Shown piece after piece: positions 23,456 through 64,000 of a DNA stretch of 64,000 bases (the stretch's first letter is position 1; the number at the start of each line of letters is the position of its first letter). Origin of the DNA: Mycolicibacterium sp. TY81 (GTDB taxonomy: Bacteria; Actinomycetota; Actinomycetes; Mycobacteriales; Mycobacteriaceae); assembly GCF_018326285.1 (NCBI RefSeq), contig NZ_AP023362.1, forward strand, positions 4,526,001-4,590,000, written 5' to 3'. The notes below the pieces were generated by a model that saw nothing but the letters and a program-made list of their open reading frames with translations, searched no databases and was not told the origin of the DNA. A program made the position numbers and the translations under genes.

Positions 23456-24165
23456 ACACGCCCGTCCGCATCGGCCTGGTCCTGCCCGACGTCATGGGCA
23501 CCTACGGTGACAGCGGTAATGCCGTCGTGCTGCGACAGCGCTTGCGGCTCAGGGGAATTGACGCCGAGATCGTCGAGATCACCCTCGACGACCCGGTGCC
23601 GGATTCGATGGACCTCTACACCCTCGGCGGCGCCGAGGACTATGCACAGCGCCTGGCTACCCGCCACCTGCTGCAATACCCGGGCCTGCAGCGTGCCGTC
23701 GAGCGCGGCGCTCCGGTGCTGGCGATCTGCGCCGCCATCCAGGTGCTCGGACACTGGTACGAGACGTCGTCAGGCGAGCGCGTCGACGGCGTCGGCCTGC
23801 TGGACGTGACGACCTCGCCGCAGCCCGAACGCACCATCGGCGAGGTGGCGTCGGTGCCGATGCTCGACGGCCTCACCCAGAACCTCACAGGCTTCGAAAA
23901 CCACCGCGGCGGAACCGATCTCGGCCCGCTGGCCAAGCCGTTGGCGCGCGTCGAGAAGGGTGCCGGCAACCGCGCGGGGTCGGGCTACGACGGTGTCGTA
24001 CAGGGCAGCGTGGTCGCCACCTACCTGCACGGCCCGTGCCTGGCCCGGAATCCGGAGCTGGCCGACTACCTGCTGGCTCAGGTGGTCGGTGAGCTGCCAC
24101 CCCTGGAACTGCCCGAGGTCGACCTGCTCCGCCGCGAGCGCCTCGCCGCACCGCGCCGGGCTTGA
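23452..24165 (+). CDS. gatD: Lipid II isoglutaminyl synthase, glutaminase subunit GatD
   Basis: Class I glutamine amidotransferase that hydrolyses glutamine and passes ammonia to MurT. 237 residues from ATG 23452, overlapping the murT stop (ATGA). The nucleophile is Cys93 in VLAICAAIQVLGHWY and the catalytic His193 is in YLHGPCLARNPE; GGAEDYAQ near residue 60 is the oxyanion-side motif of the CobQ-like family. Annotated as cobQ2 in M. tuberculosis (Rv3713), but the MurT partner identifies the role in peptidoglycan amidation rather than cobalamin synthesis. Confidence 0.95.
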   Translation: MNTPVRIGLVLPDVMGTYGDSGNAVVLRQRLRLRGIDAEIVEITLDDPVPDSMDLYTLGGAEDYAQRLATRHLLQYPGLQRAVERGAPVLAICAAIQVLGHWYETSSGERVDGVGLLDVTTSPQPERTIGEVASVPMLDGLTQNLTGFENHRGGTDLGPLAKPLARVEKGAGNRAGSGYDGVVQGSVVATYLHGPCLARNPELADYLLAQVVGELPPLELPEVDLLRRERLAAPRRA

Positions 24166-24210
24166 CGCCGGCGAAAGCGCTTGAGCCCGTTGCTGTGAAC
24201 TGACTGTCAA

Positions 24211-24224
24211 CGCGCACGTGCGCG
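24211..24224. promoter_or_regulatory. 14-bp perfect palindrome upstream of the zinc-ribbon gene
   Basis: CGCGCACGTGCGCG is perfectly self-complementary and lies 63 bp before the ATG of the small zinc-ribbon gene, between gatD and that gene. It could be an operator or part of a terminator for murT-gatD. No U-tract follows. Function unknown. Confidence 0.4.
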
Positions 24225-24286
24225 GTTTCACCATTCGACAACCGGGTAGATACGAGCCACCACTGCCCAGCTCGAGAGGTGTGCTC

Positions 24287-24391
24287 ATGTTCGACTTCTT
24301 CTGCCCCCAGTGTGGCGACTTCACCTTCGACACGGTCATCTGCCTCCACTGCGACAGTTCGACAGCACAGGAGCACGCCGAGGTAGCGTGA
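24287..24391 (+). CDS. 34-residue zinc-ribbon microprotein
   Basis: A short frame with a clear fold signature. From ATG 24287 it encodes MFDFFCPQCGDFTFDTVICL and then HCDSSTAQEHAEVA. Two C-x-x-C knuckles (CPQC at 6-9, CLHC at 19-22) separated by nine residues are the four ligands of a rubredoxin-like zinc ribbon. GAGAGG lies about eight bases upstream. It stands alone between gatD and the iron-box-preceded megasynthase locus. Function unknown. Such microproteins often regulate an enzyme or bind nucleic acid. Too short for standard gene calling. Confidence 0.6.
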   Translation: MFDFFCPQCGDFTFDTVICLHCDSSTAQEHAEVA

Positions 24392-24420
24392 AAGACATTG
24401 CTGTAGTGCATATTTCACGC
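24386..24420. promoter_or_regulatory. 8-bp inverted repeat GCGTGAAA/TTTCACGC
   Basis: GCGTGAAA (24386-24393) and TTTCACGC (24413-24420) are perfect inverted repeats with a 19-bp spacer. They overlap the stop of the zinc-ribbon gene and lie 30-65 bp before the iron box. The site could be a regulator half-site pair for the downstream locus or a weak terminator. Confidence 0.4.
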
Positions 24421-24451
24421 AATACACCACACTCGCGCCATGGGTTGCCTA

Positions 24452-24470
24452 TTTGGTTAGGCAAACCTTT
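24452..24470 (+). promoter_or_regulatory. IdeR/DtxR-type iron box
   Basis: TTTGGTTAGGCAAACCTTT matches the mycobacterial IdeR consensus TTAGGTTAGGCTAACCTAA at 15 of 19 positions, including the whole GGTTAGGC core and the AACCT arm. It lies 152 bp upstream of the chorismate lyase start and nothing else is transcribed from it rightward. It predicts repression of the lyase-megasynthase operon when iron is plentiful. The match is seen; binding is inferred. Confidence 0.68.
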
Positions 24471-24621
24471 CCGGCTCGTGGAAAGCCGCGTACCCAGTTC
24501 ATTTCTCGTCAGTTCGCCATGCACCGCACTCGGTCGTGGGGGATCATGAACCGCACGGTTCGCAGCGTCTCGCGAGCCTGCAGCACGTTGAGTATTGGCG
24601 TCTTCGATTAGGAACGGCCAT

Positions 24622-25149
24622 ATGTCCGAGTGCTTTCTGGCGGGCGAAGAAATCCACCAGCTCAATCGGGACCTACGGATACTCATCGCGACAAACGGCA
24701 CCCTCACGCGGATTCTCGGTGTCGTCAGCGGCGAGGAGATCGTGGTCCAGGTCGTCGAGCAGCAGATTCATCCGCACGAACTCGACCAGTGGGACCACCT
24801 GTCGGGCCGGGTTCTGCAACGCCGTGTCCTGCTCAACGGCCGGACCTCGGGCCGGCGATTCGTCGGCGCCGAATCCCTCATCGCCATCGACCTGCTGCCC
24901 CCGACCATCGCGGCAGACCTGACGAGCACAACTGCGCCCATCGGCGAGATCATGGCCGCCAGCCGCCTCGAAACATTCAAGGAGCCGGCCGACATCTGGG
25001 TGGCGGAATCACCCGACTGGCTTGCCGCCGCGACGGATCGGGACGCGCAATCGAGGACCGTCAGCCGCCGGTACCGCATCATCCTCGACGGCCGGCCCGT
25101 CATCGTCATCACCGAGTACTTCCTCGATTTCGAGGCAACCGCATCATGA
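24622..25149 (+). CDS. Chorismate pyruvate-lyase (4-hydroxybenzoate-forming), Rv2949c-like
   Basis: Removes pyruvate from chorismate to give 4-hydroxybenzoate, the aryl starter of phenolic glycolipids. The 175-residue protein begins [20 protein letters not shown] and follows the M. tuberculosis Rv2949c pattern as I remember it throughout: [16 protein letters not shown], then [12 protein letters not shown], then [10 protein letters not shown], then [14 protein letters not shown] and [18 protein letters not shown]. The Glu and Arg residues typical of the UbiC-like fold are present. The ATG at 24622 follows AGGAA. The stop overlaps the megasynthase start (ATGA), so starter synthesis and use are translationally coupled. 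An iron box lies upstream. Confidence 0.88.
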
Positions 25150-28100
25150 CGCTGCCGAGTGGGAATCTGGCAGCGCTGCTGGCCGAACGTGCAGCGCAGG
25201 CAGGATGGCGGGACAGGCCCGCCTACCATGGCCCGCAGGTCGTGACCCACGGGCAAATCCACGACGGCGCAGCACGTTTGGGGACGGTGCTACAGCGCCG
25301 TGGCCTCTCCGCCGGAGACCGCGTCCTGTTGTGCCTTCCGGATTCTCCCGAACTCGTACAGTTGCTGCTGGCCTGCCTCGGCCGCGGCATCGTGGCCTTC
25401 CTCGCCAACCCCGAGCTCAATCGCCGGGATCACCGTTTCGCCGAAAACGATACGGAGCCAGGCCTTGTCATCACATCCGGCGCACTCCTCGATCGGTTTC
25501 GAGAGTCGGCCGTCGCCGACGCCGCGGAGTTGCATTCCGAAGCGGCCCATGCCGGCCCGGCCGGCTACGAGCCGCTGAGCGGCAACGCTCCCGCCTACGC
25601 CACTTACACCTCCGGTACGACGGGTGCACCGAAGGCCGCCATCCACCGGCACTCCGACGCGTGGGCCTACGTCGATGCGATGTGTGACCGAGCACTGCGC
25701 CTCACCGCACCCGATGTCGGGTTGTGCAGTGCGCCAATGTACTTCGCGTACGGGCTCGGCAACGCGGTCTGGTTCCCGCTTGCGACAGGCAGTTCCGCGG
25801 TCATCGTCAAACGGCCGGTCACCCCCGAAGCGACAGCCGACCTGAGCACCACATTCGGCGCATCGGTGCTCTACGGCGTGCCGACGTTTTTCGCGCGCAT
25901 CGTCGAAGCCTGCTCCCCCGCATCATTCCGTTCGCTGCGCTGCCTGGTATCAGCCGGCGAAGCTCTCGACGTGCGGCTCGCCGAGCGGATGACGGAGTTC
26001 TTCGGCGGTATCCCGATACTCGACGGGATCGGCTCGACCGAGGTGGGGCAGACGTTCGTCTCGAACACCATCGCGGACTGGCGTCCTGGCACCATCGGAA
26101 AAGTTCTCCCGCCCTACGAGATCCGCGTCGTCACGCCGGAGGGCGCGGTGGCGCCTCCCGGCACAGTGGGGAACCTCTGGGTCCGGGGGCCGTCGATATC
26201 GCCGGGGTACTGGAGTCGTCCGGCCGGCACTCTCGTACGGGATGGCGACTGGCACGATACGCGGGACCGGGTGTCGGTCGACGCCGACGGCTGGGTGACG
26301 TACTGCTACCGCGCGGACGACACCGAGATCATCGGTGGCGTCAACGTCAATCCACGGGACATCGAGCGCCTCATCACCCAGGACGACAGGATCGCGCACG
26401 CGGCGGTAGTCGGGGTGAAGGAGTCACCCGGCGTCTCGGCGCTGCAGGCGTTCCTCGTCCCCGCCGAAAATGCCGTCGTCGACGAATCGGTCTTCCGAGA
26501 CCTGCACCAGCGCTTGGTTTCTCAGTTGTCTGCCGTCCAGGTGCCGCACAGATTCGCCGTGGTCGAGCAGCTCCCCCGCACGCCGACCGGCAAGCTGGTC
26601 CGCCCCGCGCTGCGCGCCGAGAGCCCGGCGCCGCCGATCTGGGATTACCCGGCCGCCGAGACACCCTCGGACACAGTGCCGCCCGCTCCCGAACGCGCAC
26701 CGAATCACGTGACGCTCAGTGACCGGGTCGCCGCCCTGCGGCAGGAACAGCACCGGCTGGTGGCCGATACCGTGTGCGCCGAGGTCGCGAAGATGCTGGG
26801 CCTGACGGACGCGCAAGCACTGAACCGGGATCTCGCCTTCTCCGAACTCGGCTTCGATTCGAGGATGACGGTCGAACTTCGCAACCAGCTGACAGCCGTT
26901 ACCGGACTTCAGCTTTCGGACACCGTCGGCTGGGATTACGGCTCGATCGGACAACTGGCCCGGCATGTGGAAGCCCAATTGTCCGCCGGCGCAGGCCCCG
27001 TCGCGTCGGCCCCGGCAACGACGGCCGACGAGCCCATCGCCATCGTGGGCATGGGCTGCCGCTTTCCTGGCGGGGTGGATACGCCCCAGGGCCTGTGGGA
27101 ATTGGTGGCGAACGCGCGGGATGTGGTGTCGGAGTTCCCCACCGACCGGGGGTGGGATGTGAAAGGCTTGTTCGACCCCGACCCCGATGCGGCGGGCAAG
27201 ACCTACACCCGCTGGGGTGGCTTCCTCGCGGACGTGGCCGGCTTCGACGCCGGCTTCTTCGGAATCGGCCCCAGTGAGGCGCGGGCGATGGATCCACAAC
27301 AGCGGCTGCTCCTCGAATGCTCGTGGGAAGCCTTGGAGCAGGCCGGAATTGATCCGACGTCATTGCACGGCTCCGCCACCGGGGTGTTCACCGGGGTCTT
27401 CGCGCAACGCTACGGCGCCGCGGGAACCGACAGGCTGGAAGGCTACGGGCTGACCGGCTCGGCACTCAGTGTGGCCTCGGGCCGGGTGTCGTACGTGTTG
27501 GGGCTGCAGGGGCCCGCGGTGTCGGTGGACACCGCGTGCTCGTCGTCGTTGGTGTCGCTGCACTGGGCCGCGCAGTCCCTGCGGTCGGGCGAATGCGACC
27601 TGGCGTTGGCCGGTGGCGTGACGGTGATGACGTCGCCGGAAACCTTCATCGGGTTCAGCAGGCAACGCGGACTGGCCCCGGATGGCCGGTGCAAGGCTTT
27701 CGCCGGCGCCGCGGACGGGACGGCATGGGGCGAAGGCGCCGGCGTGCTGGCGCTGGAGCGGTTGTCGGATGCCCAGCGGTTGGGACATCCCGTGCTGGCG
27801 GTGGTGCGCGGCAGTGCGGTCAACCAGGATGGCGCCTCCAATGGGCTGACCGCACCCAACGGGCCGTCGCAGCAGCGGGTGATTCGGGCCGCCCTGGCCA
27901 GCGCGGGGTTGACCGCCGCCGACGTGGATGTCGTGGAGGGCCACGGGACCGGCACCACGTTGGGGGATCCCATTGAGGCGCAGGCGCTTCTGGCCGCCTA
28001 TGGGCAGGACCGCCCGGCGGAGCGGCCGTTGTGGGTGGGCTCGATCAAATCGAACATGGGTCATACTCAGGCCGCCGCCGGCGTCGCCGGGGTGATCAAG

Positions 28101-31100
28101 ATGGTGCAGGCCATGCGCCATGGCGTGATGCCGGCAACGCTGCACGTGGATGTCCCCTCCCCGCGCGTGGATTGGGACCGCGGTGCGGTGTCCGTGCTGA
28201 CCGAGGCCCGGCCCTGGCCACTCGACGGGCGCCCGCGCCGGGCCGGTGTGTCGTCGTTCGGCATCAGCGGCACCAACGCGCATGTGATCCTGGAGCAGGG
28301 TCCGCCGCCTGAACCGGAAAGTCACGGGGCGGAGAACCCGAGCGGCGCACTCCCGTGGGTCATCTCGGCCAAATCAGCCGAGGCGCTGAGCGCGCAGGCC
28401 GACCGCTTTTCGGCCCACCTGCGCGCCCATCCGGAACTCCAGCCTGTCGACGTGGGGTACTCGCTGGCCCGACGTTCGGTGTTCGAGCACCGCGCGGTGG
28501 TGCTGGGCGCGGATCGTGAGGCACTCGCCGCGGGACTGACTGCGTTGGCCGCCGGGAAACCGCATGCGGCGGTCGTGGCAGGCCGTGCCGGCGCGGTCGG
28601 CAAGTCGGTGGTCGTGTTTCCCGGGCAGGGCTCACAGTGCCTCGGGATGGGCCGGCAGCTGTATGACCAATTGCCGTTTTACGCCACGGTGTTTGACGAA
28701 GTGGCCGCCGAGCTGGACCGTCATCTGCGGCTGCCGCTGCGCGAGGTGCTCTGGGGCTCCGACAGCGGCCTGCTCGACAGCACCGAATTCGCGCAGCCGG
28801 CGCTGTTCGCGGTGGAAGTGTCGTTGTTCGCGGTGCTGCGGCGCTGGGGCGTCACGCCCGACTTCGTGCTGGGACATTCGATCGGTGAGTTCTCGGCGGC
28901 GTACGTCGCGGGGGTGCTCACGCTCCCGGACGCCGCATTGTTGGTCGCCGCCCGGGGACGGCTGATGCAGGCCCTCCCGGCCGGCGGCGCGATGACGGCC
29001 GTGAGCGCCGCAGTAGACGTGGTGACGCCACTGCTGGCCGACGGTGCGGTGATCGCGGCGATCAATGCGCCTGAGTCGGTGGTCCTCTCGGGTCTGCAGG
29101 GCGCCGTCACCGAGACCGCCGAGCGGCTGGCCGCGCTGGGCCACCGGGTGCACCCGCTCGCGGTCTCGCATGCCTTCCACTCGCCGTTGATGGAGCCGAT
29201 GCTCGACGAGTTCGCGCGGCTCGCAGCAGAAGTCGAACCGCGCCGGCCGCAGATTCCGCTGATCTCGAATGTGACGGCCCAATCAGTTGATGCCGCAGCC
29301 GGTTTCGGCTCGGCACCATATTGGGTTGACCACATCCGGCGGCCCGTGCGTTTCGCCGACAGCATCCGGAACCTGCAGACAAGCGGCGCGACGCATTTCA
29401 TCGAGGTCGGTCCGGGCAGCGGGTTGACGGCCGCCGTCGAACAGTCGGTGTCACCGGCCGAACCCGTCACGGTGTCGCTGCTCGGCAAGGGCCGGCCGGA
29501 GGTGGCGGCACTCCTGCACGGCACCGCCCGGTTGTTCACCACCGGCTTGCCCGTGGCGTGGCCGGCGGTGTCCGCGCACGGACACCGGGTCGACTTGCCC
29601 ACGTACGCATTTCAGCGGCGTCGCTTCTGGACGATGCCGACCTCCGCCGGGTCCGCGGGTACCGCGGCACTGGGGCTGAATGCCGCCCACCATCCGTTGC
29701 TGAGCGCAGTGGTCGAGCGGCCTGATTCCGGTGGGGTGGTCTTGACCGGGCGCTTGTCCTTGGCAGATCAGCCATGGTTGGCCGATCACCTGATCGGCGG
29801 CGCGGTGCTTTTCCCCGGGACCGGGTTTGTGGAGCTGGCCCTGCGGGCCGGCGACGAGGTGGGCTGCGGAACCGTCGAAGAGTTGGTGCTGGCCGCGCCC
29901 CTGGTCCTGGACGAGGACGCGGCGACCCAACTTCAGGTGGTGGTGAGCGCTGTCGCGGAGTCGGGCAGCCGGGCGGTCTCGGTGTACGCACGTCGCGATG
30001 AGTCCGACGCGGAGTGGTCGCTGCACGCCGAGGGCACGCTGACGGCCCACGCTTCGGAGCGCGCAGGAGACCTGACGGCGTGGCCGCCGCCCGGTGCGGC
30101 GAGCGTCGACCTGTCCGGTGGCTATGCGCGGCTCGGCGAGCGCGGCTACGAGTACGGGCCGGCGTTCCAGGGCCTGATCGCGCTCTGGCGCTGCGGCCCT
30201 GAGCTTTTCGCCGAGGTTGCCGCACCCGATGACGCGGGTGCGGCCGACACGATGGGTATCCATCCGGCGGTGCTGGATGCGGTGCTGCACGCGGCCGGGC
30301 TGGCCAGCGACACCACCCAGACGATGTTGCCGTTCTGCTGGCGCGGTGTGACGCTGCATGCCGGCGGCGCCGGGCGGGTACGGGCCCGCATCACCGTGCT
30401 GGGCGACGACGAACTGTCGGTGGACGTGGCCGACCACGCCGGGTCGCCGGTGCTCACGGTGCGCGCACTGACCACCCGCCCGATCACCGCCGACCAACTC
30501 CCCGCCGCCGCTGACGGACCACTCGAAGTGCTCTGGACGCCGATATCGTTGAGCCACAAGCCCGAACCGGCGGATCGTGACCGAGTGGTGGTGTGGGAGT
30601 ACACATCCGCCGACGACGACGTGGTGGGCGCGGTGCATGCCGGCACGTGCGCCGCCCTTGAGGTATTGCAGGATTGGCTGGCCGACGAGCGTGCCGGCAC
30701 CTTGGTGGTGTCGACCCGCGGCGCGGTGGGACTGGCCGGCGAGGACGTCGGCGATCTGGCTGCCGCGGCGGTGTGGGGTCTGGTGCGCTCGGCGCAGGCC
30801 GAAAACCCGGGCCGCATCATGCTTCTCGACACCGACGGCACGGTCGACCCGACCAAGCTCGTCGCCGCCGGCGAGCCGCAACTCGTGGTGCGGTCCGGCA
30901 AGGTGCACGCTGCCCGGTTGGCCTCGGCCCCAGCGCTTTTGGTGCCACCGGAAGGTGCGTGGCGGTTGGCGGTCGGCGGTGACGGGACGCTGGAGAACCT
31001 CGCCATCCGGCCCTGCCCCGAGGTGGAAGCAGCGTTGCCGGCCGGCCAGGTGCGGGTGGCGGTGGCGGCGGTCGGGGTCAACTTCCGCGACGTCATGGCG

Positions 31101-34100
31101 GCGTTGGGCATGTATCCCGGGCAGGCCCCCGTGCTGGGCGCCGAGGGCGCCGGCGTGGTGGTGGAGACCGGCCCGGGCGTCTCGGGCATTGCGGTCGGTG
31201 ATGCGGTGATGGGCCTGATGGCCGGCACCGGCCCGGTGGCCGTGGTCGATGAGCAGTTGCTCACCATGGTGCCGGAGGGCTGGTCGCTCGAGCAGGCCGC
31301 CGGGGTCTCGGTGGCGTTCCTGACGGCCCTGTACGGATTGTTGGATCTGGCCGGCATCGCTGCCGGGGAATCGGTACTCGTGCACGCCGGCACCGGCGGG
31401 GTGGGCATGGCGGCGGTGCAGCTGGCCCGCCACCTCGGTGCGGACGTCTTCGTCACCGCCAGTCCGGGCAAGTGGAACACCTTGCGCGCCATGGGTTTTG
31501 CCGACGACCACATCGGCGATTCGCGCACCCTCGACTTCGAGGACAAGTTCCTGGCGGTCACCGGGGGCCGCGGCGTCGACATCGTGCTCGACTCGCTGGC
31601 CGGGGAATTCGTGGACGCGTCGCTCCGGTTGCTGGGCCGCGGTGGGCGTTTCATCGAGATGGGCAAGACCGACATCCGCGACGGCGAGGCGGTCGCCGCG
31701 CAGTATCCCGGTGTCCGGTACCAGGCTTTCGATCTCTCCGAGGCCGAACCGCAACGGATGCAGGCGATGCTGTGCGAGTTGACCAAGCTCTTCGAAACGG
31801 AGCGGCTGCGGCCCCTGCCCGTCACCCCCTGGGATGTCCGCTGCGCCCCGGAGGCCTACCGGTTCATCAGTCAGGCGCGCCATATCGGCAAGGTGGTGCT
31901 GACGATGCCGACGGCGCTGGCCGGCCGACTCGCCGACGGCACGGTGTTGATCACCGGCGCCACCGGAATGGTCGGCGCGCATCTGGCCCGCCATCTGGTC
32001 AGTGCCTACGGCGTCCGGCACCTGGTGCTGGCCAGCCGGCGTGGGGACCGCGCCGAGGGCGCCGCCGCGCTGGCCGCCGAATTGGAAAGTGCCGGCGCCC
32101 ACGTGGAATTGGTGGCCTGCGATGTCACCGATCCGGACGCGGTGCGAGCGCTGGTCGCGCGGTGCTCCCCGCCACTGCGCGGAGTGATCCATGCCGCGGG
32201 CGTCCTCGACGATGCCGTGATCGCCTCCCTGACCCCGGACCGGCTGGGCCCGGTGCTGCGGGCCAAGGTGGACGCGGTCTGGAACCTGCACGAAGTCACC
32301 CGCGATCTGAATCTGGCGATGTTCGTGTTGTGTTCGTCGATCGCCGCCACGGTGGGCGCACCGGGACAGGGCAATTACGCAGCGGCGAACGCGTTCCTGG
32401 ACGGCTTTGCCGCCCATCGGCGAGCCCTGGGATTGCCCGGTACGTCCCTCGTGTGGGGAATGTGGGAACAGTCCGGTGGGATGACGGCCCACCTGAGCGA
32501 CCGTGATCTGGCCCGGATCAGCAGCAGCGGGCTGGCACCGATGACACCCGCGCAGGCGCTGCAACTGTTCGACGACGCGCTGACGCACGATCACCCCGTG
32601 GCCGTCGCCGCCCGCCTGGACCGGGCCGCACTGAACACCAAGGCCCGCAACGGAAATCTGCCGGTGTTGTTCAGCGGGCTGGTCCGCAGTCCGCGGCGGC
32701 GGCCGGCCCACGATTCCGGCGATGCCACCGCCTCGAAGTCAGCGCTGGCCCAGCGCCTCAACGGGTTGACGCGCGATGAGCAGCGCGCGCTGCTGACCGA
32801 CATGGTGTGCGCGCAGGCGGCGGCGGTTCTCGGCCGCCCCACACCCGACGATCTCGACCGCGAGGCCGCTTTCGAGGAGCTGGGCTTCGACTCCCTCACC
32901 GCCGTCGAACTACGCAACCGCCTCAAGACCGTGACGGGCCTGGCCCTGCCGCCGACCCTGATCTTCGACCACCCCAGCGCCAGTGCACTGGCGGCCCACC
33001 TCGCCGGTTCGCTCACCGCCACCGACACCGCCGCGGCCGTAACGCACGTCGACGCGCCCTCCGCTCGGCCCGTGGACGACCGGCTCGCCTATCTGGACCA
33101 GGCCGCGTTCCTCGCGCTGCGCGCGAGCCATGGCACCGTCCTGCAGATGACCTGGATCTATGACCGGGCCGTCGACGTCGCCGCGTTGCGGCGGTTTCAC
33201 CACAACCTCGGTCATGGTCTGCTGGGGCGCCTGATCGAGCGGGCGTCGGTACCGTTCGCCCGTGATCGCTGGGTCCGGTCTCCGGCGGCGCCCGACATCG
33301 ACTTCGCCGTGAAGGCACGGCCGCGCGCCGCGGTGAGCGCATGGTCCGACGAGCGCGCCCGGCTGCCGCTCGATCCCGAGCGGGGCCCCGGATGGCATCT
33401 CGGGGTGCTGCCGCTCGAGGGCGGCGCCACCGCGATCAGCCTCGTGGCGTCGCATCTGATCGTCGATGCCATCGCCTTCGGGCAGGCGGTCGCCGACGCC
33501 GTCGAGGGCCGGACGCACGACCTGGGTTATCTGCCGGCGCGGTCACGGCCTCGCGGTCGCGCCCTGCGCGAGGATCTGCGGCAGACGGTCAAGGATCTGC
33601 CCGACATGGCGCACGGCGTGGCCGCCGTGGCCCGGATCGCGCGACGCGGAGCGAGCGAATCAGCGCCGCAGGCCAAGCCGGCACCCCCGAGCAAAGCCGG
33701 CAGCGACCAGAAGGTCGACGTCCCCGGCCTCACCGCGCAGATCGATCTGAGCGCATGGGATGCCCGCGCGAAAAGCCTTGGCGGCGGCAGTAACTCGCTC
33801 ATCGCCGGCATCGCGTGCCGGCTGGCTGTGGCGACCGGGCGCGTTCAGGAGGACGGGACGGTCACGCTGCGCTTCGTGCTGTCGCGGCGGACCGAGGGCG
33901 ATACCCGCGCCAATGCGCTGACGAGTGCCGACGTCGTGGTCGACCCGACGCACGTGGCGAAGGACCTCGCGGACATCCGCGCCAAGATCACGCGCGCCAC
34001 CCTCGAGACCATCGAGAACCCTGACGACGAGGCCCTGACGCCGACGGCCCTGGCGGCGGTCACGCCGAAGTGGGCGGTCCGGAAGTTCGGTGCGATGGCA

Positions 34101-34403
34101 GCAGGCGGCGCCGTCCTGCCCGTCACGTGCTCCAACGTCGGTGACGTGCCGGCGGCGGTGAGCCGGCCCGACGGCACCGAGGCTGACTACCTGTCCATGC
34201 GATCGGTCGAGCCCGACATCACGAAGGGCCTGCTCGAGGCGATGGGCGGCCAGATGTTCCTGTCGTCGGGGCGCGCCGGCGGAAAGATGTCGATCAGAAT
34301 CTCCGCCTATCTCCCGGGCCGGCTCGACACCCGGGAAGCGTTGCGCGACACGGTGTCACGAGTCCTTGCCGAATTCGATCTGGATGCGCAGATCGACTAC
34401 TGA
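25146..34403 (+). CDS. Aryl-acid-loading type I PKS with fused C-terminal acyltransferase (AL-ACP-KS-AT-DH-ER-KR-ACP-condensation-like)
   Basis: A 3085-residue megasynthase starting at ATG 25146, overlapping the chorismate lyase stop. Domains in order: benzoate-CoA-ligase-like adenylation, about 1-500 ([11 protein letters not shown] near 155, PTGKLVRP near 480); ACP1 with Ser572 ([12 protein letters not shown]); KS about 628-1050 (DTACSSS, Cys798; [19 protein letters not shown]); AT about 1150-1460, Ser1245 in GHSIGEFSA and [10 protein letters not shown], so malonyl-specific; DH with [10 protein letters not shown] near 1548; ER about 1960-2250 ([15 protein letters not shown]); KR about 2260-2450 ([15 protein letters not shown] motif, B-type); ACP2 with Ser2583 ([12 protein letters not shown]). 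The C-terminal ~440 residues (from about 2640) form a condensation/PapA-like domain with HLIVDAIAF (H-x-x-x-D). All catalytic residues I looked for are present. The first eight domains equal FadD22 plus Pks15/1 of phenolic glycolipid synthesis. Likely product: a 4-hydroxyphenylalkanoyl chain, released by transfer to an unknown acceptor. Confidence 0.92.
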
Positions 34404-35308
34404 CCGCCTGCCGCGGCCTGTTCCCGGGCAGCACGGGCCACTGGTGAGTACTCCAGGTAGTCCAGCGCCATCTGTGTCGACGCCTCCGCGTTGGGGTGAT
34501 AGCCGGGCCGGATGTAGCGGAACGGCACCGTCACCATGAGCAGCCAGGGACCGGGCACCCGGTACTCCCGCGAGGCGCGCAGCCAGTCGCGGAACCGCGG
34601 CTTGGCGGAGATGGTCGGGTCGGCGTTCATGAGGTACCGCATACCCCGGTACCACGTGAGCAGGAACCCGGGCGCGGTGAGCAGCATCGTCACCGCCCGC
34701 ATGAGGTAGTTGCCGCACAGATGCTGGTAGATGTCGAACACCAGCGCGCGGTGTTCGATCTCCTCGGCTCCGTGCCAGCGCAGCAGATCCAGCATGGTCG
34801 GATCGGCGCCGGCGTAGTCGAGGCCGCGGTTCTGGATCGTCCACTGGCCCAGCGCCGCGTTGAAGGGTTCGAGGGCCGCGGCCACCGCCAGGCGCTGGTA
34901 CAGCGCCCACCGCTGTACCACCCGCGGCAGTCGTGACTGTTTGGCAGCGGCCTTGTCACCCACCGCGGGCAGTTCGGTGGACATCGTGCCGGTGAACGGC
35001 GTGGTGTCGATGCCCTGTTCCAGCAGATGTTGCAGCACCATCTGGTGCGCCTGGGCATGCCAGCCCTCCTGCTGCACGAACGGCTTGATCGCGGCTTTCA
35101 TCTGCGGGTCGTCGACGAGCGGTTCGGCCTCGTTGACGACCTGGATGAACCAGCGCTCACCGGCCGGCAGCATCAGGTGCAGCACGTTCAGCATGTGGGT
35201 GGAAAACGGATCGCCGGGAACCCAGTGCAGCGGCGTGTCCGACCAGTCGAAGCGGACCTTTCGGCGGTGGGTCGGATATCCGTCGTGGTGGACCTCGTGA
35301 TCAGCCAT
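34397..35308 (-). CDS. PF10118-type predicted metal-dependent hydrolase
   Basis: A 303-residue mainly helical protein starting [20 protein letters not shown]. It fits the 'predicted metal-dependent hydrolase' family (PF10118). The motifs [14 protein letters not shown], then [15 protein letters not shown] and RPGYHPN place Glu and His residues as in di-iron helical bundles, so an oxygenase or hydrolase role is possible. An in-frame start 18 codons upstream is available but lacks support. It converges on the megasynthase, with coding ends overlapping by 7 bp, and is followed upstream by the Gap-like exporter on the same strand (34 bp gap). It may tailor the polyketide lipid; this is inferred from position only. 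Confidence 0.8.
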
Positions 35309-35342
35309 CCCCACTCTTTTCCCAGTTGGAGCGGCTTTAACC

Positions 35343-36083
35343 CTACGCCAACAACCCCGCACCCTGCGCGACGAACGCCAGGCCGACGAGGGTCACGATC
35401 GCCACCACGATCTGTTGCCGGTAGCCGCCGACCCAGTCGTGCACTTTCCGCAGTGCCGCTTGGGTTTTCGCCGGTGCGACGACATTGCAGAGCAACACCA
35501 CCTCGACGACGGCGAGGCTCACGACGATGAACACCAGCGCGACGGCGATCTGTGTGCCGATGGCGGCGCCCGACGCCAGGATCGTCGTCAGCGCGAACAG
35601 CACCAGCGACGGGTTCGGGCCGGCCCAGAAGCCGATCACCGCCGCGACCCACAGCGCCCCGCTCTCCCAGGCGCGTTGCGCGCGCCCCAGCAGGCCGCCG
35701 CGCGGCGGCGCGTCGGGGTCCCGGTGCAGCAACTTCGAGATGGGTGAGACGTCGTCGTCCGGGGTGCGCCGGCGCGTCACCATCCGCACCGCCGTCACTG
35801 CCGCGATGACGAGCAGCAGCACGCCGACGGCCACCTGGAGGTGCCGCATCGTCGCGCTCGCGGTGGTGCGCGGGTTGGCCAGGTCGTGCACCCACGCCAG
35901 GTCGGTGAAGTGCAGCGCCAGCAGCGGAAGCAACAGCAGCATGACGCTCGCGGCCACGCAGCCGACCCAGTACACCAGCAGGTTCTGCGCCGGGCGCGGC
36001 CGGGAGATCAGCAACAGGTTGACGCCGAGGCGCACCGGATCGAACGCGATCGGCAGTGCCAGCACCGCCACAGAACCCCACAT
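35343..36083 (-). CDS. Gap/Sap-family lipid-addressing membrane protein
   Basis: A 246-residue protein with six predicted helices, starting MWGSVAVLALPIAFDPVRLG, the typical start of the Gap/Sap family (PF11139; glycopeptidolipid or sulfolipid addressing proteins). A central charged loop (RRRTPDDDVSPISKLL) separates two three-helix halves, the second holding GFWAGPNPSLVLF. Family members are needed to move complex lipids to the mycobacterial surface. Its place beside a lipid megasynthase suggests it exports that product. An alternative TTG start lies three codons upstream (36092). It reads in the same direction as the PF10118 gene. Confidence 0.83.
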   Translation of the reverse strand: MWGSVAVLALPIAFDPVRLGVNLLLISRPRPAQNLLVYWVGCVAASVMLLLLPLLALHFTDLAWVHDLANPRTTASATMRHLQVAVGVLLLVIAAVTAVRMVTRRRTPDDDVSPISKLLHRDPDAPPRGGLLGRAQRAWESGALWVAAVIGFWAGPNPSLVLFALTTILASGAAIGTQIAVALVFIVVSLAVVEVVLLCNVVAPAKTQAALRKVHDWVGGYRQQIVVAIVTLVGLAFVAQGAGLLA

Positions 36084-36113
36084 TGCCGCCAACTTACCGG
36101 GCGCGGCGGAGTG

Positions 36114-37997
36114 CTAGCTGGGGCGCAGCACCGGGATGAGCGCGTCGATCACCGAGCTGTCCTCGATGGTGGACGGGACGACGTAGTCGGTGCCTTCGGC
36201 GATCTGCCGCATGGTCTTTCGCAGGATCTTGCCCGAGCGGGTCTTGGGCAGCGCGCCCACGACGGTGACGTCACGGAAGGTGGCGACGGCGCCGATCTGG
36301 TCCCGCACCATCGCCGCGAGTTCCTGTTGCAGCACCCCGCCGTCGATGTCCGCCCCGGCCTTGAGCACGACGTAGCCGCTGGGCCGCTGCCCCTTGAGGT
36401 CGTCGTGGACGCCGATGACGGCGCACTCGGCGACGGCCCGGTGGCCGGCGATGACGGCTTCGATGCTCCCGGTCGAAAGCCGGTGCCCCGCAACGTTGAT
36501 CACGTCGTCGGTGCGGCCCAGCACGGTGAGGTAACCGTCGTCGTCGACGTAGCCGAAGTCACCGGTGAGGTAGTAGCCGGGGAACGCCGACAGGTACGAC
36601 TGCACGTAGCCCTTGTCGTTCTGCCACAGCCCGGCCAGCGTGCCGGGCGGCAGTGGCAGCTTGATGACGATGTTGCCCTCGACGCCGGGCGCGACCGGAT
36701 TGCCCGACGCGTCGACGATGCTGACGCGGTAGCCGGGTACCGGCACGGTCGGGGAGCCGGCTTTGATGGGCATGGGTTCGAGCCCGCGCAGGTTCGCGCA
36801 GATCGCCCAGCCGGTTTCGGTCTGCCACCAGTGGTCGACGACGGGGCAGTGCAACTTCTCCGAGGCCCATTCATAGGTGTCGGGGTCCAGCCGCTCCCCG
36901 GCGACGAAGAGCGTGTGCAGCGTCGAAATATCATGGCCCGCAAGCAATGACGCGTCAGGGTCGGCTTTGCGGATGGCACGCAGCGCGGTCGGCGCGGTGA
37001 ACAGCGCCGCCACGCGATGTTGCTCGATGACCCGCCAGAACGCGCCCGCGTCGGGAGTGCCGACGGGCTTGCCTTCGTAGAGCACGGTGGTGGCGCCGGC
37101 GATCAGCGGCCCGTACACGATGTACGAGCTGCCGACGACCCACCCGATGTCCGAGGCCGTCCACATCACCTGGCCGGCACCGATGTCGTAGACGTTCTTC
37201 ATCGACCAGGCCAGCGCGACGGCGTGCCCCCCGTTGTCGCGGACGACGCCCTTGGGCCGCCCGGTCGTGCCGGAGGTGTACAGGATGTAGAGCGGGTCGG
37301 TGGCGGCCACCGGCACCGGAGCGGCGGGCTCGGCACCTGCGGCCAACGTGTCCCAATCGAGGTAGCCCGGATAGTCGGCGGCCTCCCCCGCGATCTCGCC
37401 GCGGTTCTTGACGATCACCGTGGCCGGCGCGGCGCTGGTCAGCGTCAGCGCCTTGGCGACGACGGGCAGGTATTCGACGGTGCGACCCGGTTCCAGCCCA
37501 CCGGAGGCGGTCAGCAGCGCCACCGGCTGTGCGTCGTCGATGCGGGCCGCGAGTTCGTTCGCCGCGAACCCACCGAACACCACCGAGTGGACGGCGCCGA
37601 TGCGGGCGCAGGCCAGCATGGCGACAACCGCTTCGGGGATCATCGGCATGTAGACCACGACGCGGGCGCCCTTGGTGACGCCTTGTGCGGCAAGCACTCC
37701 GGCGAAGCGCGCCACCCGGTCGAGCAGTTCGGCGTACGTGAAGGACTGCTGCACGCCGACCATCGCGGAGTCGTAGATCAGTGCGGTGCGGCCGCCGTTA
37801 CCGGCCGCGACGTGCCGGTCGAGGGCGTTGTAGCAGGTGTTGAGCTGACCGTCGGGGAACCAGCGGTAATGCGGCGCCGCGGAATCGTCGAGTGCGCGGG
37901 TCGGCGCGACGGTCCAGTCGATGGCCTGCGCGGCCGTCAGCCAGAAGTCGTCGGGCCGCTCCGCTGCGGCCTCGAACGCCTCGCGATAGGCGCTCAC
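36114..37997 (-). CDS. prpE: Acetyl/propionyl-CoA synthetase (PrpE-like)
   Basis: AMP-forming short-chain acyl-CoA synthetase, 627 residues from the GTG at 37997, which overlaps the stop of the upstream aminotransferase-like gene (GTGA). The N-terminal ACAS segment is YREAFEAAAERPDDFW; the adenylate motifs are YILYTSGTTGRPKGVV and WWQTETGWAI, then TGDFGYVDDDGY; the catalytic lysine is in PKTRSGKILRK. Overall the pattern is nearer propionyl-CoA synthetase (PrpE) than Acs. It would turn acetate or propionate from the neighbouring pathway into an acyl-CoA. Substrate choice cannot be settled by eye. Confidence 0.86.
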   Translation of the reverse strand: MSAYREAFEAAAERPDDFWLTAAQAIDWTVAPTRALDDSAAPHYRWFPDGQLNTCYNALDRHVAAGNGGRTALIYDSAMVGVQQSFTYAELLDRVARFAGVLAAQGVTKGARVVVYMPMIPEAVVAMLACARIGAVHSVVFGGFAANELAARIDDAQPVALLTASGGLEPGRTVEYLPVVAKALTLTSAAPATVIVKNRGEIAGEAADYPGYLDWDTLAAGAEPAAPVPVAATDPLYILYTSGTTGRPKGVVRDNGGHAVALAWSMKNVYDIGAGQVMWTASDIGWVVGSSYIVYGPLIAGATTVLYEGKPVGTPDAGAFWRVIEQHRVAALFTAPTALRAIRKADPDASLLAGHDISTLHTLFVAGERLDPDTYEWASEKLHCPVVDHWWQTETGWAICANLRGLEPMPIKAGSPTVPVPGYRVSIVDASGNPVAPGVEGNIVIKLPLPPGTLAGLWQNDKGYVQSYLSAFPGYYLTGDFGYVDDDGYLTVLGRTDDVINVAGHRLSTGSIEAVIAGHRAVAECAVIGVHDDLKGQRPSGYVVLKAGADIDGGVLQQELAAMVRDQIGAVATFRDVTVVGALPKTRSGKILRKTMRQIAEGTDYVVPSTIEDSSVIDALIPVLRPS

Positions 37998-39319
37998 GCG
38001 AGTTCCTTGGCGACAGCCGAGAACACCGTCATGAACCAGTCCAGGTCCGACATCGAGAAGACAAGAGGTGGGCGCACTTTGAGGATGTTGCCATGTCCGC
38101 CGCACACAGAGATCAGAACGCGGTTATCGCGCATCATGTCGACGATGCGCTGCGCCTGCCCGCGGTCGTGTTCCTTGCTGTCGGGGTCGGCGACGATCTC
38201 GACGCCGGTGTACAGGCCCGCGCCGCGGACGTCGCCGACGAACGGGTAGTCCTTCGCCAGCGCGCGCAGTTCGGCGCGCAGTTGGTCACCGACCTCGACG
38301 GCGTGCGCGGCCAGCCCGTCGCCCTGGATGACGTCGAGGACGGCCTGCGCCGCGGCCATCGAGACGGGGTTGCCGCCAAAGGTGTTGAAGTAGGGCGTCT
38401 CCTGTGCGAAGGCGTCGAGAATCTCCGGGCGGGCGGCCATCGCCGCGACAGGAATGCCGTTGCCCATGGGCTTGCCCATCGTCACCAGGTCGGGCACCAC
38501 GCCGTGCCGCTGGAAACCCCACATCGCCTCGCCGGTCCGCGAGAAGCCCGGCTGCACCTCGTCGGCGATGAACACGCCGCCGGCGCGGTGGACGACCTCG
38601 ACAGCGGGCGCCAGCACCGATGGATCGACGTAGATGCCGTCGGAGGAGAAGATCGAATCCAGCAGCAGCGCGCTGAACTTGTGGCCGTGCCGCTCCAGAT
38701 CGGCGATCGCGGCGCTGACCTGGTCGGCGAACCACTGGCCCAGCACCGCCGGGTCGATGCGGTACGAGTCCGGCGCCGGCACCGTGCGCACGTTGGCGCC
38801 CAGTGGCACACCGACGCCCAGCGACGGCGACATCGCCGAGATCAGCGCACTGTTGCCGTGGTACGCCTCCTCGGTGACGATGACCCCGGTGCCGCCGCTG
38901 TACTGTTCGGCGACCCGGACGGCCAGGTCGTTGGCCTCGGATCCCGTGCAGGTGTACATGATCGACGAGATCTCCGCCGGGAACGTGGCCAGCAGCTTCT
39001 CGGAGTAGTCGAGGATGCCGCCGTGCAGGTACCGGGTGTGGGTGTTGAGCTCCGACATCTGCCGGGTGACGGCCTCGATGACCCGCGGGTTGCAGTGCCC
39101 GACGCTGGCCACGTTGTTGTAGGCGTCGAGGTACTTGTTGCCGTCGGCGTCATAGAGATGGGCGCCCGAGCCTTTGACCAGGTGGACGGGCCGGTTGTAG
39201 AAGAGCCGATAGGACGGACCCAGCGTCGATCGCCGCTTCTCGACCATGGCATCGGTGGTGGGGTCGAGATCTTCCCCTCCGGTGTAGCTGTTGGAGTCCA
39301 TGATTGTGGAGAAAGCCAT
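37994..39319 (-). CDS. Class-III PLP-dependent enzyme (aminotransferase or phospho-lyase)
   Basis: A 441-residue fold-type I enzyme. PLP lysine Lys283 is in VTMGKPMGNG; the PLP-binding Asp253 and the rest of the motif are in FIADEVQPGFSRTG; the phosphate site is TCTGSEANDLA. It is closest in feel to the AGXT2-like group, which includes ethanolamine-phosphate and 5-phosphohydroxylysine phospho-lyases as well as true aminotransferases. A kinase of the matching type, an amino-compound permease and an acyl-CoA synthetase lie beside it, favouring the phospho-lyase reading (amino-alcohol phosphate to aldehyde, ammonia and phosphate). The ATG at 39319 follows AAGGAC. A plain omega-aminotransferase remains possible. 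Confidence 0.85.
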   Translation of the reverse strand: MAFSTIMDSNSYTGGEDLDPTTDAMVEKRRSTLGPSYRLFYNRPVHLVKGSGAHLYDADGNKYLDAYNNVASVGHCNPRVIEAVTRQMSELNTHTRYLHGGILDYSEKLLATFPAEISSIMYTCTGSEANDLAVRVAEQYSGGTGVIVTEEAYHGNSALISAMSPSLGVGVPLGANVRTVPAPDSYRIDPAVLGQWFADQVSAAIADLERHGHKFSALLLDSIFSSDGIYVDPSVLAPAVEVVHRAGGVFIADEVQPGFSRTGEAMWGFQRHGVVPDLVTMGKPMGNGIPVAAMAARPEILDAFAQETPYFNTFGGNPVSMAAAQAVLDVIQGDGLAAHAVEVGDQLRAELRALAKDYPFVGDVRGAGLYTGVEIVADPDSKEHDRGQAQRIVDMMRDNRVLISVCGGHGNILKVRPPLVFSMSDLDWFMTVFSAVAKELA

Positions 39320-39396
39320 GTTCGTTGTCCTTGCGGTAGAAAGCGATCGGCGCGGTGTGACGAGGTGACGGCGGATGCTGGATGACGCCTACGGCG

Positions 39397-40977
39397 TCAA
39401 CGTTCTTCGTCGAGCACGACGCGCCCCAATCGGTCGTAGCGCTGCGGGGACCGGGCCCGAAGTACCAGGGCGACAACGATTCCGGCGATCGCGGTGCCAC
39501 CGACGACCCAGGGAATCGAATCGAAGACGATGTCGTCCTTGGCCGTACCCGCCGCGAACGAGGCGTTCTTGATCAGCAGGTAGATGACGTACAGCATGCC
39601 GATGCCGCCGAGCCCGGGGGCGACCAAGGTGCGGAACCAGTGCGTGGTCTCCGGATGTTGCTTGCGCACATGGAAGTACGAGACCACCGAGAACGCCGCC
39701 ATCGCCTGCACGATGAGAATGGCGGATGTGCCCAGCAGCGCGGCAAGGCCGTAGAGCCCGCTGTAGGGATCGCGACCGGAGACCGCGAACCACAGCACGA
39801 TCACCAGGGTGATGGCCGTCTGCACGAAGCCCGCGAAGTGCGGGGATCCGTGGATGTGGTGGGTACGGCCAATGGTTTTCGCGGTTCCGGGGAGGATGTC
39901 TTCCCGGCCGAGCGCGTAGATGTAGCGGGCAGCGCAGTTGTGGAAGGCCATGCCGCACGCGTACGAGCCGGTGGTGAGCAGGATCTGGAACATGGTCACG
40001 GCCCAGCCACCGAGGTGCTCACGCACCGGGGTGAAGAAGATCTCCCCGGCGGTGTTCGTATCCTGCGCCAGCGCAATGGATTTGCTGGGTCCGGTGCCCA
40101 CGATCGCCAGCCACGACACCACGATGTAGAACGCCCCGATGCCGAGCACCGACGACATGATCGCAACGGGGATGATCTTCTTGGGGTTCTTGGACTCTTC
40201 GCCGTACATGGCGCTGGACTCGAATCCCACCCAGGACCAGAAGGCGAAGAACAAGCCGATCCCGGCGGAGCCTGCCACGGCCATGGTGCCCGCGCCGCTG
40301 ACGTTTGGGACGACGGCGTCGAGCCCCTTCAGCCCGTTGATCGGGTTGAGAGATGACAGCGACCAGCCTTCCGGGCCACCGCCGCTGACGACCACCGAAC
40401 CCGCCATCAGCGTCAACATCACAATCTCGGTGATCAGCAGTCCGCCAAGCACTTTCGCGGCCAAGTTGACATCGAAGTAGGTGAGTACCGCATTGGCGAC
40501 GATCATCACCACGGCGAACAGCAGCCACGGCAGATGCACGTTGAACAGTGAGGCGAACAGATCCCGTGAGAAGAACGAGAAAATGCCGACCAGGGACGCC
40601 TCGAAAACCACGTACGCCAGGACCGTCAGGAAACCGGCCGACAGACCGAGCACCCGCCCGAGTCCGTGCGAGATGTAGCCGTAGAACGCACCGGTGGCGG
40701 TGATGTGCTTCGACATCGCCGCATATCCGACAGCGAAGAGGCCCAGCACGATGGTGGCGATGAGGTACCCGGCAGGAGCGGCGGCGCCGTTACCGGACCC
40801 GACGGCGATCGGGACGTTGCCGACCATCGCGGTGATCGGGGCGGCGGTGGCCACCGCCATGAACAGCACGCCGATCAAGCCGACGGCGTTGGGTTTGAGG
40901 CGCTGCACGCCGGGGCCGCTGTCGGGCGGTGCCGGTGTCAGCGGGGCGGTTCGTGGGTGGTCGTCGATTTCACTCAT
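39397..40977 (-). CDS. APC-superfamily amino acid/amine permease
   Basis: A 526-residue secondary transporter with about 12-14 transmembrane helices. It starts MSEIDDHPRTAPLTPAPPDS and then enters the APC core (GVLFMAVATAAPITAMVGN, GYAAMSKHITATGAFY). The GFESSAMYGEESK stretch after helix 6 is typical of the amino acid/ethanolamine branch. It is the first gene of the leftward unit permease - PLP enzyme - acyl-CoA synthetase and is divergent from the kinase. It probably imports the amino compound degraded by the cluster. Confidence 0.88.
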   Translation of the reverse strand: MSEIDDHPRTAPLTPAPPDSGPGVQRLKPNAVGLIGVLFMAVATAAPITAMVGNVPIAVGSGNGAAAPAGYLIATIVLGLFAVGYAAMSKHITATGAFYGYISHGLGRVLGLSAGFLTVLAYVVFEASLVGIFSFFSRDLFASLFNVHLPWLLFAVVMIVANAVLTYFDVNLAAKVLGGLLITEIVMLTLMAGSVVVSGGGPEGWSLSSLNPINGLKGLDAVVPNVSGAGTMAVAGSAGIGLFFAFWSWVGFESSAMYGEESKNPKKIIPVAIMSSVLGIGAFYIVVSWLAIVGTGPSKSIALAQDTNTAGEIFFTPVREHLGGWAVTMFQILLTTGSYACGMAFHNCAARYIYALGREDILPGTAKTIGRTHHIHGSPHFAGFVQTAITLVIVLWFAVSGRDPYSGLYGLAALLGTSAILIVQAMAAFSVVSYFHVRKQHPETTHWFRTLVAPGLGGIGMLYVIYLLIKNASFAAGTAKDDIVFDSIPWVVGGTAIAGIVVALVLRARSPQRYDRLGRVVLDEER

Positions 40978-42337: not shown

Positions 42338-42353
42338 CAGGACACCGCGCACC

Positions 42354-43130: not shown

Positions 43131-43145
43131 TACCAGGTCGGTACG

Positions 43146-48654: not shown

Positions 48655-48663
48655 GTCCCCACG

Positions 48664-51624: not shown

Positions 51625-64000
<12,376 letters not shown>

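What the first reader, a model, noticed from the sequence alone, without database searches (positions are those of the whole stretch)
24287..36083. Iron-box-preceded locus for a 4-hydroxyphenyl polyketide lipid, with its own exporter
Seen: iron box, chorismate lyase, a single-chain aryl-loading PKS, and a Gap-family protein in one 12-kb block. Known: Rv2949c, FadD22 and Pks15/1 make the phenol chain of phenolic glycolipids, and Gap/Sap proteins move complex lipids outward. Inference: this is a distinct phenolic-lipid pathway without Pps, FadD29 or glycosyltransferase genes, possibly induced by low iron. I know of no description of this arrangement, but cannot search.
Basis: partly seen in the sequence, partly recalled or inferred. 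Interest (0 to 1): 0.85.

Follow-up and report, generated by a model that had tools for sequence, protein, structure and literature searches.

The report
Iron-box phenolic lipid synthase with built-in acyltransferase
A small group of fast-growing mycobacteria carries, behind a predicted low-iron switch, a lyase and one giant enzyme that should build a phenol-tipped fatty chain and hand it to an alcohol by itself, unlike the known phenolic glycolipid pathway.

Summary
Window 24452-24470 is a strong IdeR-type iron box, followed by a Rv2949c-like chorismate lyase (24622-25149) and a 3085-aa synthase (25146-34403) with a FadD22-type loader. The box is one of two perfect matches to the pattern in the 6.47-Mb genome. 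Lyase, synthase, box core and flanks recur at the same place in all 5 of 396 genus genomes that have a close lyase.

The body groups with Pks15/1, the tail with tails of fatty-acyl-loaded synthases: a fusion. The tail is not PapA-type; it belongs to a large, mostly unnamed family with weak WS/DGAT, BAHD and PapA5 signals.

Best reading: 4-hydroxybenzoate is loaded, extended with malonyl units, reduced, and released in cis as an ester of an unknown alcohol when iron is short. No Pps-like ketosynthase set exists in this genome. The Sap/Gap gene is a conserved neighbour on the opposite strand; 'own exporter' is only suggested. Product, acceptor and induction are untested.

The parts
24287..24391 (+). 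34-codon mini-ORF with CPxCG...CLxC zinc-ribbon pattern, upstream of the box
   Evidence: 34 codons and four Cys kept in 5 of 5 carriers (G149 has CSSCG); differences by codon position 52/67/108 over all pairs; among the 226 loci searched, full-length hits come only from the 5 carriers. Role unknown; may not belong to the pathway.
24452..24470 (+). IdeR-type iron box TTTGGTTAGGCAAACCTTT
   Evidence: Core GGTTAGGCAA[AC]CC kept in 5 of 5 carriers.
24505..24565 (+). conserved leader element (hairpin or start of a short ORF) between box and lyase
   Evidence: invariant columns; consensus stem without covariation support; short frame conserved at its N-terminus but shifted or stopped early in 2 of 5.
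24622..25149 (+). Rv2949c-like chorismate lyase, makes 4-hydroxybenzoate (inferred)
   Evidence: PF01947 E 1.6e-16; 2nwi E 1.6e-10; 5 of 396 genus genomes have it at 75% identity or more, own genome included.
25146..26645 (+). synthase residues 1-500: FadD22-type adenylation (loading) domain
   Evidence: NF004716 FadD22 1072 bits, below its cut-off of 1228; pocket-region motifs shared with nine FadD22-type domains of lyase-linked loci.
26646..27005 (+). synthase residues 501-620: loading ACP (LGFDS)
27021..28295 (+). synthase residues 626-1050: ketosynthase
   Evidence: PF00109 E 9.4e-97; [21 protein letters not shown] intact.
28596..29555 (+). synthase residues 1151-1470: acyltransferase (HAFH, malonyl type by recall)
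   Evidence: PF00698, GHSIGE and HAFH.
29676..32495 (+). synthase residues 1511-2450: dehydratase, enoyl reductase, ketoreductase
   Evidence: PF21089/PF14765, PF13602/PF00107, PF08659; motifs intact.
32766..33020 (+). synthase residues 2541-2625: second ACP (LGFDS)
   Evidence: PF00550.
33066..34400 (+). synthase residues 2641-3085: C-terminal HxxxD acyltransferase-like domain, proposed to release the chain onto an alcohol
   Evidence: HLIVDA at residue 2770; family of 1554 homologues among 7997 scored; WS/DGAT signal via paralogue L095, TIGR02946 E 5.6e-9; PF03007 in 21 of 40 and PF02458 in 13 of 40 members at E<=1; 8s6l (PapA5) is the best of 7 weak PDB hits, E 0.07, best single stretch 2.3.
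34397..35290 (-). PF10118 'predicted metal-dependent hydrolase' gene, conserved neighbour, role unknown
   Evidence: present at this place in 5 of 5 carriers.
35343..36092 (-). Sap/Gap-family (SfLAP) membrane protein, possible export helper
   Evidence: PF11139 4.6e-49; same place in 4 of 4 other carriers at 93-97%; not at this place in 8 of 8 non-carrier loci fetched.

Best explanation
The locus is an IdeR-controlled two-gene operon for a phenol-tipped ester lipid. When iron is short, IdeR leaves the box at 24452 and the operon is transcribed (inferred). The lyase turns chorismate into 4-hydroxybenzoate (family function). The giant protein adenylates it and loads it on its first ACP (family function), the KS-AT-DH-ER-KR-ACP module extends it repeatedly with malonyl units to a saturated 4-hydroxyphenylalkanoyl chain, as Pks15/1 does (family function; iteration inferred), and its own C-terminal HxxxD domain, of the kind found at the end of fatty-acyl-loaded mycobacterial synthases (shown by trees), transfers the chain from the ACP to the hydroxyl of an acceptor, probably a sugar or glycolipid such as a trehalose derivative (inferred). 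This release in cis replaces FadD29 and PpsA-E.
For: Shown from sequence: box, lyase, domain order, intact motifs; box is one of two perfect genomic matches and in the company of mbt-type genes; same arrangement, place and box core in 5 of 5 carriers; loader like lyase-linked FadD22 domains; body joined with the five PGL-type Pks15/1 rows at 100/100, tail joined with FAAL-PKS tails at 100/99 (72); no Pps-like set in the genome; tail family weakly related to HxxxDG acyltransferases. The one stand-alone tail relative whose neighbourhood was annotated (L091, 53%) sits near MmpL, FAAL-like, glycosyltransferase and methyltransferase genes, which suggests an acceptor in envelope glycolipids. PapA5, the best though weak PDB match, moves mycocerosic acids onto phthiocerol (PMC4183827, passage).
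Against: No product, expression or IdeR-binding data. The tail matches no curated family above cut-off: TIGR02946 12.3 bits against 309.95, no Pfam hit for the domain itself even at E 10, PDB E 0.07 is not significant. HxxxDG reads HxxxDA in all eight fused tails aligned. In carrier G157 the box scores only 12/19, no better than another site in that locus. The box ends 151 nt before the lyase start, while four mbt-type sites end 5-39 nt before the first possible start of the frames called there. PGL genes of M. tuberculosis go down in low iron. The place of this tail inside the FAAL-PKS tails has moderate support (86/89). Chain length and iteration are carried over from Pks15/1.
Confidence: 0.55

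Rival explanations
1. The aryl chain is the acyl starter of the large NRPS in the same insertion region (51.6 kb to beyond the window), giving a phenol-tipped lipopeptide exported by the MmpL next to it.
For: An MmpL gene and the NRPS lie 14-17 kb from the synthase in the window, and proteins of matching length and position lie 10-16 kb from it in G222 and G157 (not annotated there). The first NRPS frame begins with a condensation domain at residues 15-341, as lipo-initiating NRPSs do (the comparison is recalled).
Against: The synthase has its own transfer-like domain; other synthases with the same tail (L076-L078) have no NRPS among the ten neighbours scanned; no box-like place near the NRPS in the genome scans; the NRPS frame looks interrupted at two places in this assembly.
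Confidence: 0.12
2. The C-terminal domain is hydrolytic or inactive and the 4-hydroxyphenylalkanoate leaves as a free acid or is picked up by a FadD29-like ligase for an unrelated PKS.
For: HxxxDG is HxxxDA in the fused tails; no significant match of the domain itself to a proven acyltransferase. FadD29-like ligases in the genome were not tested.
Against: His and Asp invariant in 40 of 40 chosen family members; the domain is kept at 85-91% identity in 4 of 4 other carriers; no Pps-like set.
Confidence: 0.15
3. Ordinary phenolic glycolipid (PGL) locus of the M. tuberculosis/M. marinum type.
For: Same lyase, loader and Pks15/1 body.
Against: No Pps-like KS set in the genome, loader and PKS fused in one chain, extra tail, iron box.
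Confidence: 0.04
4. The box is a chance or relic site and the operon is not iron-regulated.
For: Only 12/19 in G157; 3-mismatch scans are noisy (3 to 10 control hits per strand in four genomes); long leader.
Against: 0 control hits at two mismatches in the own genome; 3 of 20000 sampled regions reach the score; core invariant while flanks drift.
Confidence: 0.12

Closest known systems
Rv2949c / FadD22 / Pks15/1 arm of phenolic glycolipid synthesis
   Same: Chorismate lyase, 4-hydroxybenzoate adenylation domain plus ACP, KS-AT-DH-ER-KR-ACP body (KS 79-84%, AT 69-71%, ER 73-77% to five loci of this type, L065-L069).
   Different: Loader and PKS are one protein; a C-terminal acyltransferase-like domain is added; no Pps-like set in the genome; iron box; no glycosyltransferase hit among the neighbours scanned.
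FAAL-loaded synthases with the same tail in slow growers (M. kansasii, M. persicum, M. basiliense and others, hits)
   Same: Same C-terminal domain (52-69% in nearly all full-length tails).
   Different: Other loader (21-32% to ours), other AT (mostly 32-45%), no lyase match and no site above 12/19 at the three loci examined (L076-L078). No listed paper describes them.
PapA5 and PapA1-3
   Same: Act beside a PKS and esterify its chain (PapA3 on trehalose, PapA5 on phthiocerol; PMC4183827 passages).
   Different: Separate proteins; no sequence similarity found to a PapA2-type protein of the same genome; PapA5 only at E 0.07.
IdeR regulon (mbtA/B, mbtI, siderophore-interacting proteins)
   Same: Same type of box; the genome scans find both.
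   Different: Target is a phenolic-lipid synthase rather than siderophore or iron-storage genes.

Membership tests
Phenolic glycolipid pathway | Rv2949c-type chorismate lyase | tested here: met
   PF01947 61.1 bits, cut-off 22
Phenolic glycolipid pathway | FadD22-type 4-hydroxybenzoate loader | tested here: inconclusive
   Best NCBIfam ligase hit is FadD22, 1072 bits, but below the equivalog cut-off 1228; pocket-region motifs match
Phenolic glycolipid pathway | Pks15/1 body | tested here: met
   Tree, 100/100 with five PGL-type rows
Phenolic glycolipid pathway | PpsA-E in the genome | tested here: not met
   PF00109 inventory of the own genome
Phenolic glycolipid pathway | FadD29 | not tested
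   No ligase inventory of the genome was made
PapA family (PapA1-3 type) | sequence similarity to PapA2 | tested here: not met
   PDB search finds no PapA2 for the domain, while the genome's own PapA2-type protein gives E 7.8e-142; negative
WS/DGAT family | match above curated cut-off | tested here: not met
   TIGR02946 12.3 of 309.95 bits; no PF03007 for the domain itself
HxxxDG acyltransferase superfamily (BAHD, WS/DGAT, PapA, condensation) | catalytic His and Asp of HxxxD | tested here: met
   His130 and Asp134 of the domain invariant in 40 of 40 chosen rows; G is A in the fused tails
HxxxDG acyltransferase superfamily | significant profile match | tested here: inconclusive
   Domain itself none; paralogue L095 TIGR02946 E 5.6e-9; weak hits
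HxxxDG acyltransferase superfamily | fold | not testable with these tools
IdeR regulon | operator near consensus | tested here: met
IdeR regulon | IdeR binding and iron response | not testable with these tools
   wet-lab question
Sap/Gap (SfLAP) family | PF11139 above cut-off | tested here: met
   167.2 bits, cut-off 35
Sap/Gap (SfLAP) family | helps export of the locus product | not testable with these tools
   adjacency only

The most novel reading that the evidence does not exclude
A new class of mycobacterial phenolic lipids, made under iron limitation by one self-releasing synthase: the aryl chain is off-loaded in cis by a member of a widespread HxxxD acyltransferase family for which I found no description, and the same domain would be the release step of many orphan FAAL-PKSs in slow-growing mycobacteria. 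The low-iron phenolic lipid might reshape the envelope for mycobactin traffic or hold the lipophilic siderophore.
Probability: 0.4. Interest if true: 0.78.

Novelty: new variant of a known kind. Interest (0 to 1): 0.62.

Why it matters
It ties a phenolic-lipid pathway to the iron regulon, suggests a route from chorismate to a finished lipid in two genes, and points to a common but unnamed acyltransferase-like family as the possible release step of many mycobacterial synthases. Two genes and one box make it unusually easy to test.

Tried and rejected
I first took the C-terminal domain for a PapA protein because of context and memory. That was wrong: the genome's own PapA2-type protein finds PapA2 in the PDB, the domain does not and has no similarity to that protein. 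My notebook entries still say PapA-like; the entry corrects it.

Considered and dropped: an ordinary PGL locus (no Pps-like set); plasmid carriage (lyase has no match in 72,556 plasmid records); sigma-70 promoter or terminator matches at 24100-24700 (none); a leader peptide before the lyase (frame shifted or stopped early in 2 of 5 carriers); a conserved RNA fold of the leader (38 pairs, 5 with a compensatory change, but covariation term +0.92, so no support). A named-genome scan with the lyase gave 2 loci from 56 pattern matches, Mycolicibacterium sp. CBMA 226 and sp. lyk4-40-TYG-92.

Sampling limits: genus searches covered 297, 396, 198 and 148 genomes drawn from a larger genus, and 61 genomes (own, genus and order relatives) for the Sap/Gap protein. 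In one search at most 5 and at most 8 candidates per genome were scored. One search scored 2621 and 7997 candidates, those sharing most words; one search lists 120 of its 1554 hits. Alignment A4 used 40 rows that I chose. The trees used 25 and 24 rows that I chose (19 of the 98 hits).
Full report
OBSERVATION. The lyase ORF 24622-25149 and the synthase ORF 25146-34403 overlap by ATGA. The lyase matches PF01947 (Rv2949c-like) at E 1.6e-16. The synthase, 3085 aa, reads A-ACP-KS-AT-DH-ER-KR-ACP by Pfam and its motifs (recalled) are intact: YTSGTTG, PTGK, two [61 protein letters not shown]. After the second ACP about 445 residues remain that Pfam does not name. The Sap/Gap-family gene is at 35343-36092 on the minus strand.

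THE IRON BOX. TTTGGTTAGGCAAACCTTT at 24452 is the best site of the window, 15/19; the next score 12. In a first-order Markov model of the 456-nt intergenic region, 3 of 20000 samples reach 15. In the whole genome the pattern WWWGGTTAGSCWAACCTWW with up to two mismatches occurs at 5 places with no control hit; two are perfect, this one and 964196. A scan with the full consensus and up to three mismatches adds 433311 and 967828 (this box, at four mismatches, is not in that list). Of the six other places, three stand before or between siderophore-type genes: 967828 before salicylate synthase (TIGR03494, 580 bits against a cut-off of 325), 974278 between an aryl-acid ligase and an NRPS (mbtA/mbtB-like by inference), 433311 before a siderophore-interacting protein. 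A fourth, 964196, stands before a pair of ABC transporters next to these (IrtAB-like by inference). 1279346 (oxidoreductase or unknown) and 2449610 (penicillinase-repressor family) do not fit. So the scan finds a mycobactin-type regulon with this operon in it. In four other carriers the site scores 14, 13, 12 and 14 of 19 at the same place while the surrounding DNA drifts; GGTTAGGCAA[AC]CC is kept in 5 of 5. At three mismatches the genome scan of these carriers is noisy, with 3 to 10 control hits per strand.

DISTRIBUTION AND PLACE. 32 of 396 genus genomes have any relative of the lyase. Five have a close one (75% or more: the own genome, G222, G149, G380, G157), and all five carry lyase, synthase, PF10118 gene, Sap/Gap gene and acyl-CoA synthetase in the same order after murT-cobQ2. 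In 8 of 8 non-carrier loci fetched none of the genes downstream of the synthase lies at this place; in 6 of the 8 a beta-lactamase-fold gene follows cobQ2 directly. In the own genome recR lies about 59 kb after cobQ2, so the region looks like an insertion. The species of the window itself was not identified. Among the 98 homologues, 9 complete proteins (the window's own included) have the FadD22-type loader; one shorter protein lacks the loader but is 75-94% alike from KS to tail (P0008).

A FUSION. Against the five PGL-type loci L065-L069 the KS is 79-84%, AT 69-71%, ER 73-77% identical; against the FAAL-loaded synthases L076-L078 the KS is 68-70%, AT 33-34%, ER 43-50%, yet the tail 64-67%. 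Trees agree: the body (KS to KR, 25 rows) joins PGL-type Pks15/1 at 100/100; the tail (24 rows) joins FAAL-PKS tails at 100/99, apart from stand-alone family members, with moderate support (86/89) for its place among them. The loader carries the same pocket-region motifs ([18 protein letters not shown] and others) as nine lyase-linked FadD22-type domains, with a CSAP for S[SI]AR change in the carriers. Its nearest solved relatives are benzoate-CoA ligases.

THE TAIL. It keeps HxxxD as HLIVDA; His and Asp are invariant in 40 of 40 chosen members. It has 1554 homologues at E<=0.001; of the 120 listed most have no name or 'hypothetical protein', some are named after attached PKS parts. It is not PapA1-3 type. 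Signals to the HxxxDG acyltransferase superfamily are weak but agree: own-genome paralogue L095 (43-44%) matches the WS/DGAT model TIGR02946 at 5.6e-9, far under its cut-off; 21 of 40 members touch PF03007 and 13 of 40 PF02458 at E<=1, best 8e-4 and 2e-3; the best of 7 weak PDB hits of the 40-row profile is 8s6l, a phthiocerol dimycocerosyl transferase (PapA5 by recall), E 0.07 for the whole chain and 2.3 for the best stretch, with HxxxDG on HxxxDG and SN-G on SN-G; the other six hits are unrelated proteins. L095 alone finds no such structure. The fold could not be predicted. I read the tail as an O-acyltransferase that releases the chain in cis, about 70% likely; the acceptor is open.

EXPORT. 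The Sap/Gap gene is conserved with the locus (5 of 5), and 2 of 29 other Sap/Gap loci lie next to a gene of the same acyltransferase family (L123, L125), which favours a link. Against it: 27 of 29 do not; here it is on the opposite strand, 21 bp from the acyl-CoA synthetase gene; and the genome has four other above-cut-off family members.

PAPERS. Passages read: PMC7205293 (Rv2949c makes p-HBA, FadD22 activates it, Pks15/1 extends it with malonyl-CoA in eight to nine cycles; the PGL genes are down after one week of low iron and mostly down in high iron), PMC6996325, PMC4183827, PMC7261415, PMC11837247. For all others only listings and abstract starts were seen. In searches no listed title or abstract start describes such a locus or such a fused tail; several lists were capped and the library lacks most subscription journals.

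LIKELIHOOD OF STEPS (my estimates). Lyase makes 4-hydroxybenzoate 0.9; loading of it 0.85; reduced alkyl chain 0.8; iron control 0.8; release as ester by the tail 0.7; sugar-type acceptor 0.4; Sap/Gap protein helps export 0.35.

Noticed in passing
window 47944-64000 and on to G000:C1:4608579: A beta-lactamase-fold gene, an MmpL gene and a very large NRPS with TE lie in the same ~59-kb insertion between cobQ2 and recR, with an MbtH gene towards the far end. The NRPS frame looks interrupted at two places beyond the window, a broken gene or an assembly error; pieces were searched apart.
   Followed up: partly
window 24287-24391: 34-codon zinc-ribbon mini-ORF upstream of the iron box, conserved in all five carriers; full-length hits in the fetched loci come only from the carriers.
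   Followed up: partly
window 24505-24565: Conserved element between iron box and lyase that could be a hairpin or the start of a leader ORF (M...WxIMN); no covariation support.
   Followed up: partly
window 27975-28049 minus: Rfam ASpks antisense RNA (RF01782, 85.9 bits, cut-off 52) matches opposite the ketosynthase; may just mirror conserved KS coding sequence.
   Followed up: no
window 36114-43940: Opposite-strand block of acyl-CoA synthetase, class-III aminotransferase and amino-acid permease, then APH-like, SDR and GntR/UTRA genes on the plus strand: looks like a catabolic cassette, not lipid synthesis.
   Followed up: no
L065 (G157), L071, L074, L075, L080: Further lyase plus FadD22-type loader loci of other architecture: G157, which also carries this locus, has a separate PGL-type one; L074 looks like a modular aryl-loaded PKS. 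L070, L072, L073 and L079 have a lyase without a loader match in the stretch fetched; L079 has a member of the tail family (38%) nearby.
   Followed up: no
G000:C1:2449610 and the same sequence in G222, G149, G157, G380: Overlapping box-like palindromes (TTAAGTTAGGTTAGCCTTACTATA) before a penicillinase-repressor-family gene in the own genome, with the same sequence in four more; probably an operator of another regulator.
   Followed up: no
P0100-P0219 and L095-L098: Large mycobacterial family of ~445-aa HxxxD proteins, stand-alone or fused, mostly unnamed in the part listed; four further copies in the own genome, two of them about 7-9 kb from the ketosynthase of a 2091-aa PKS frame.
   Followed up: partly
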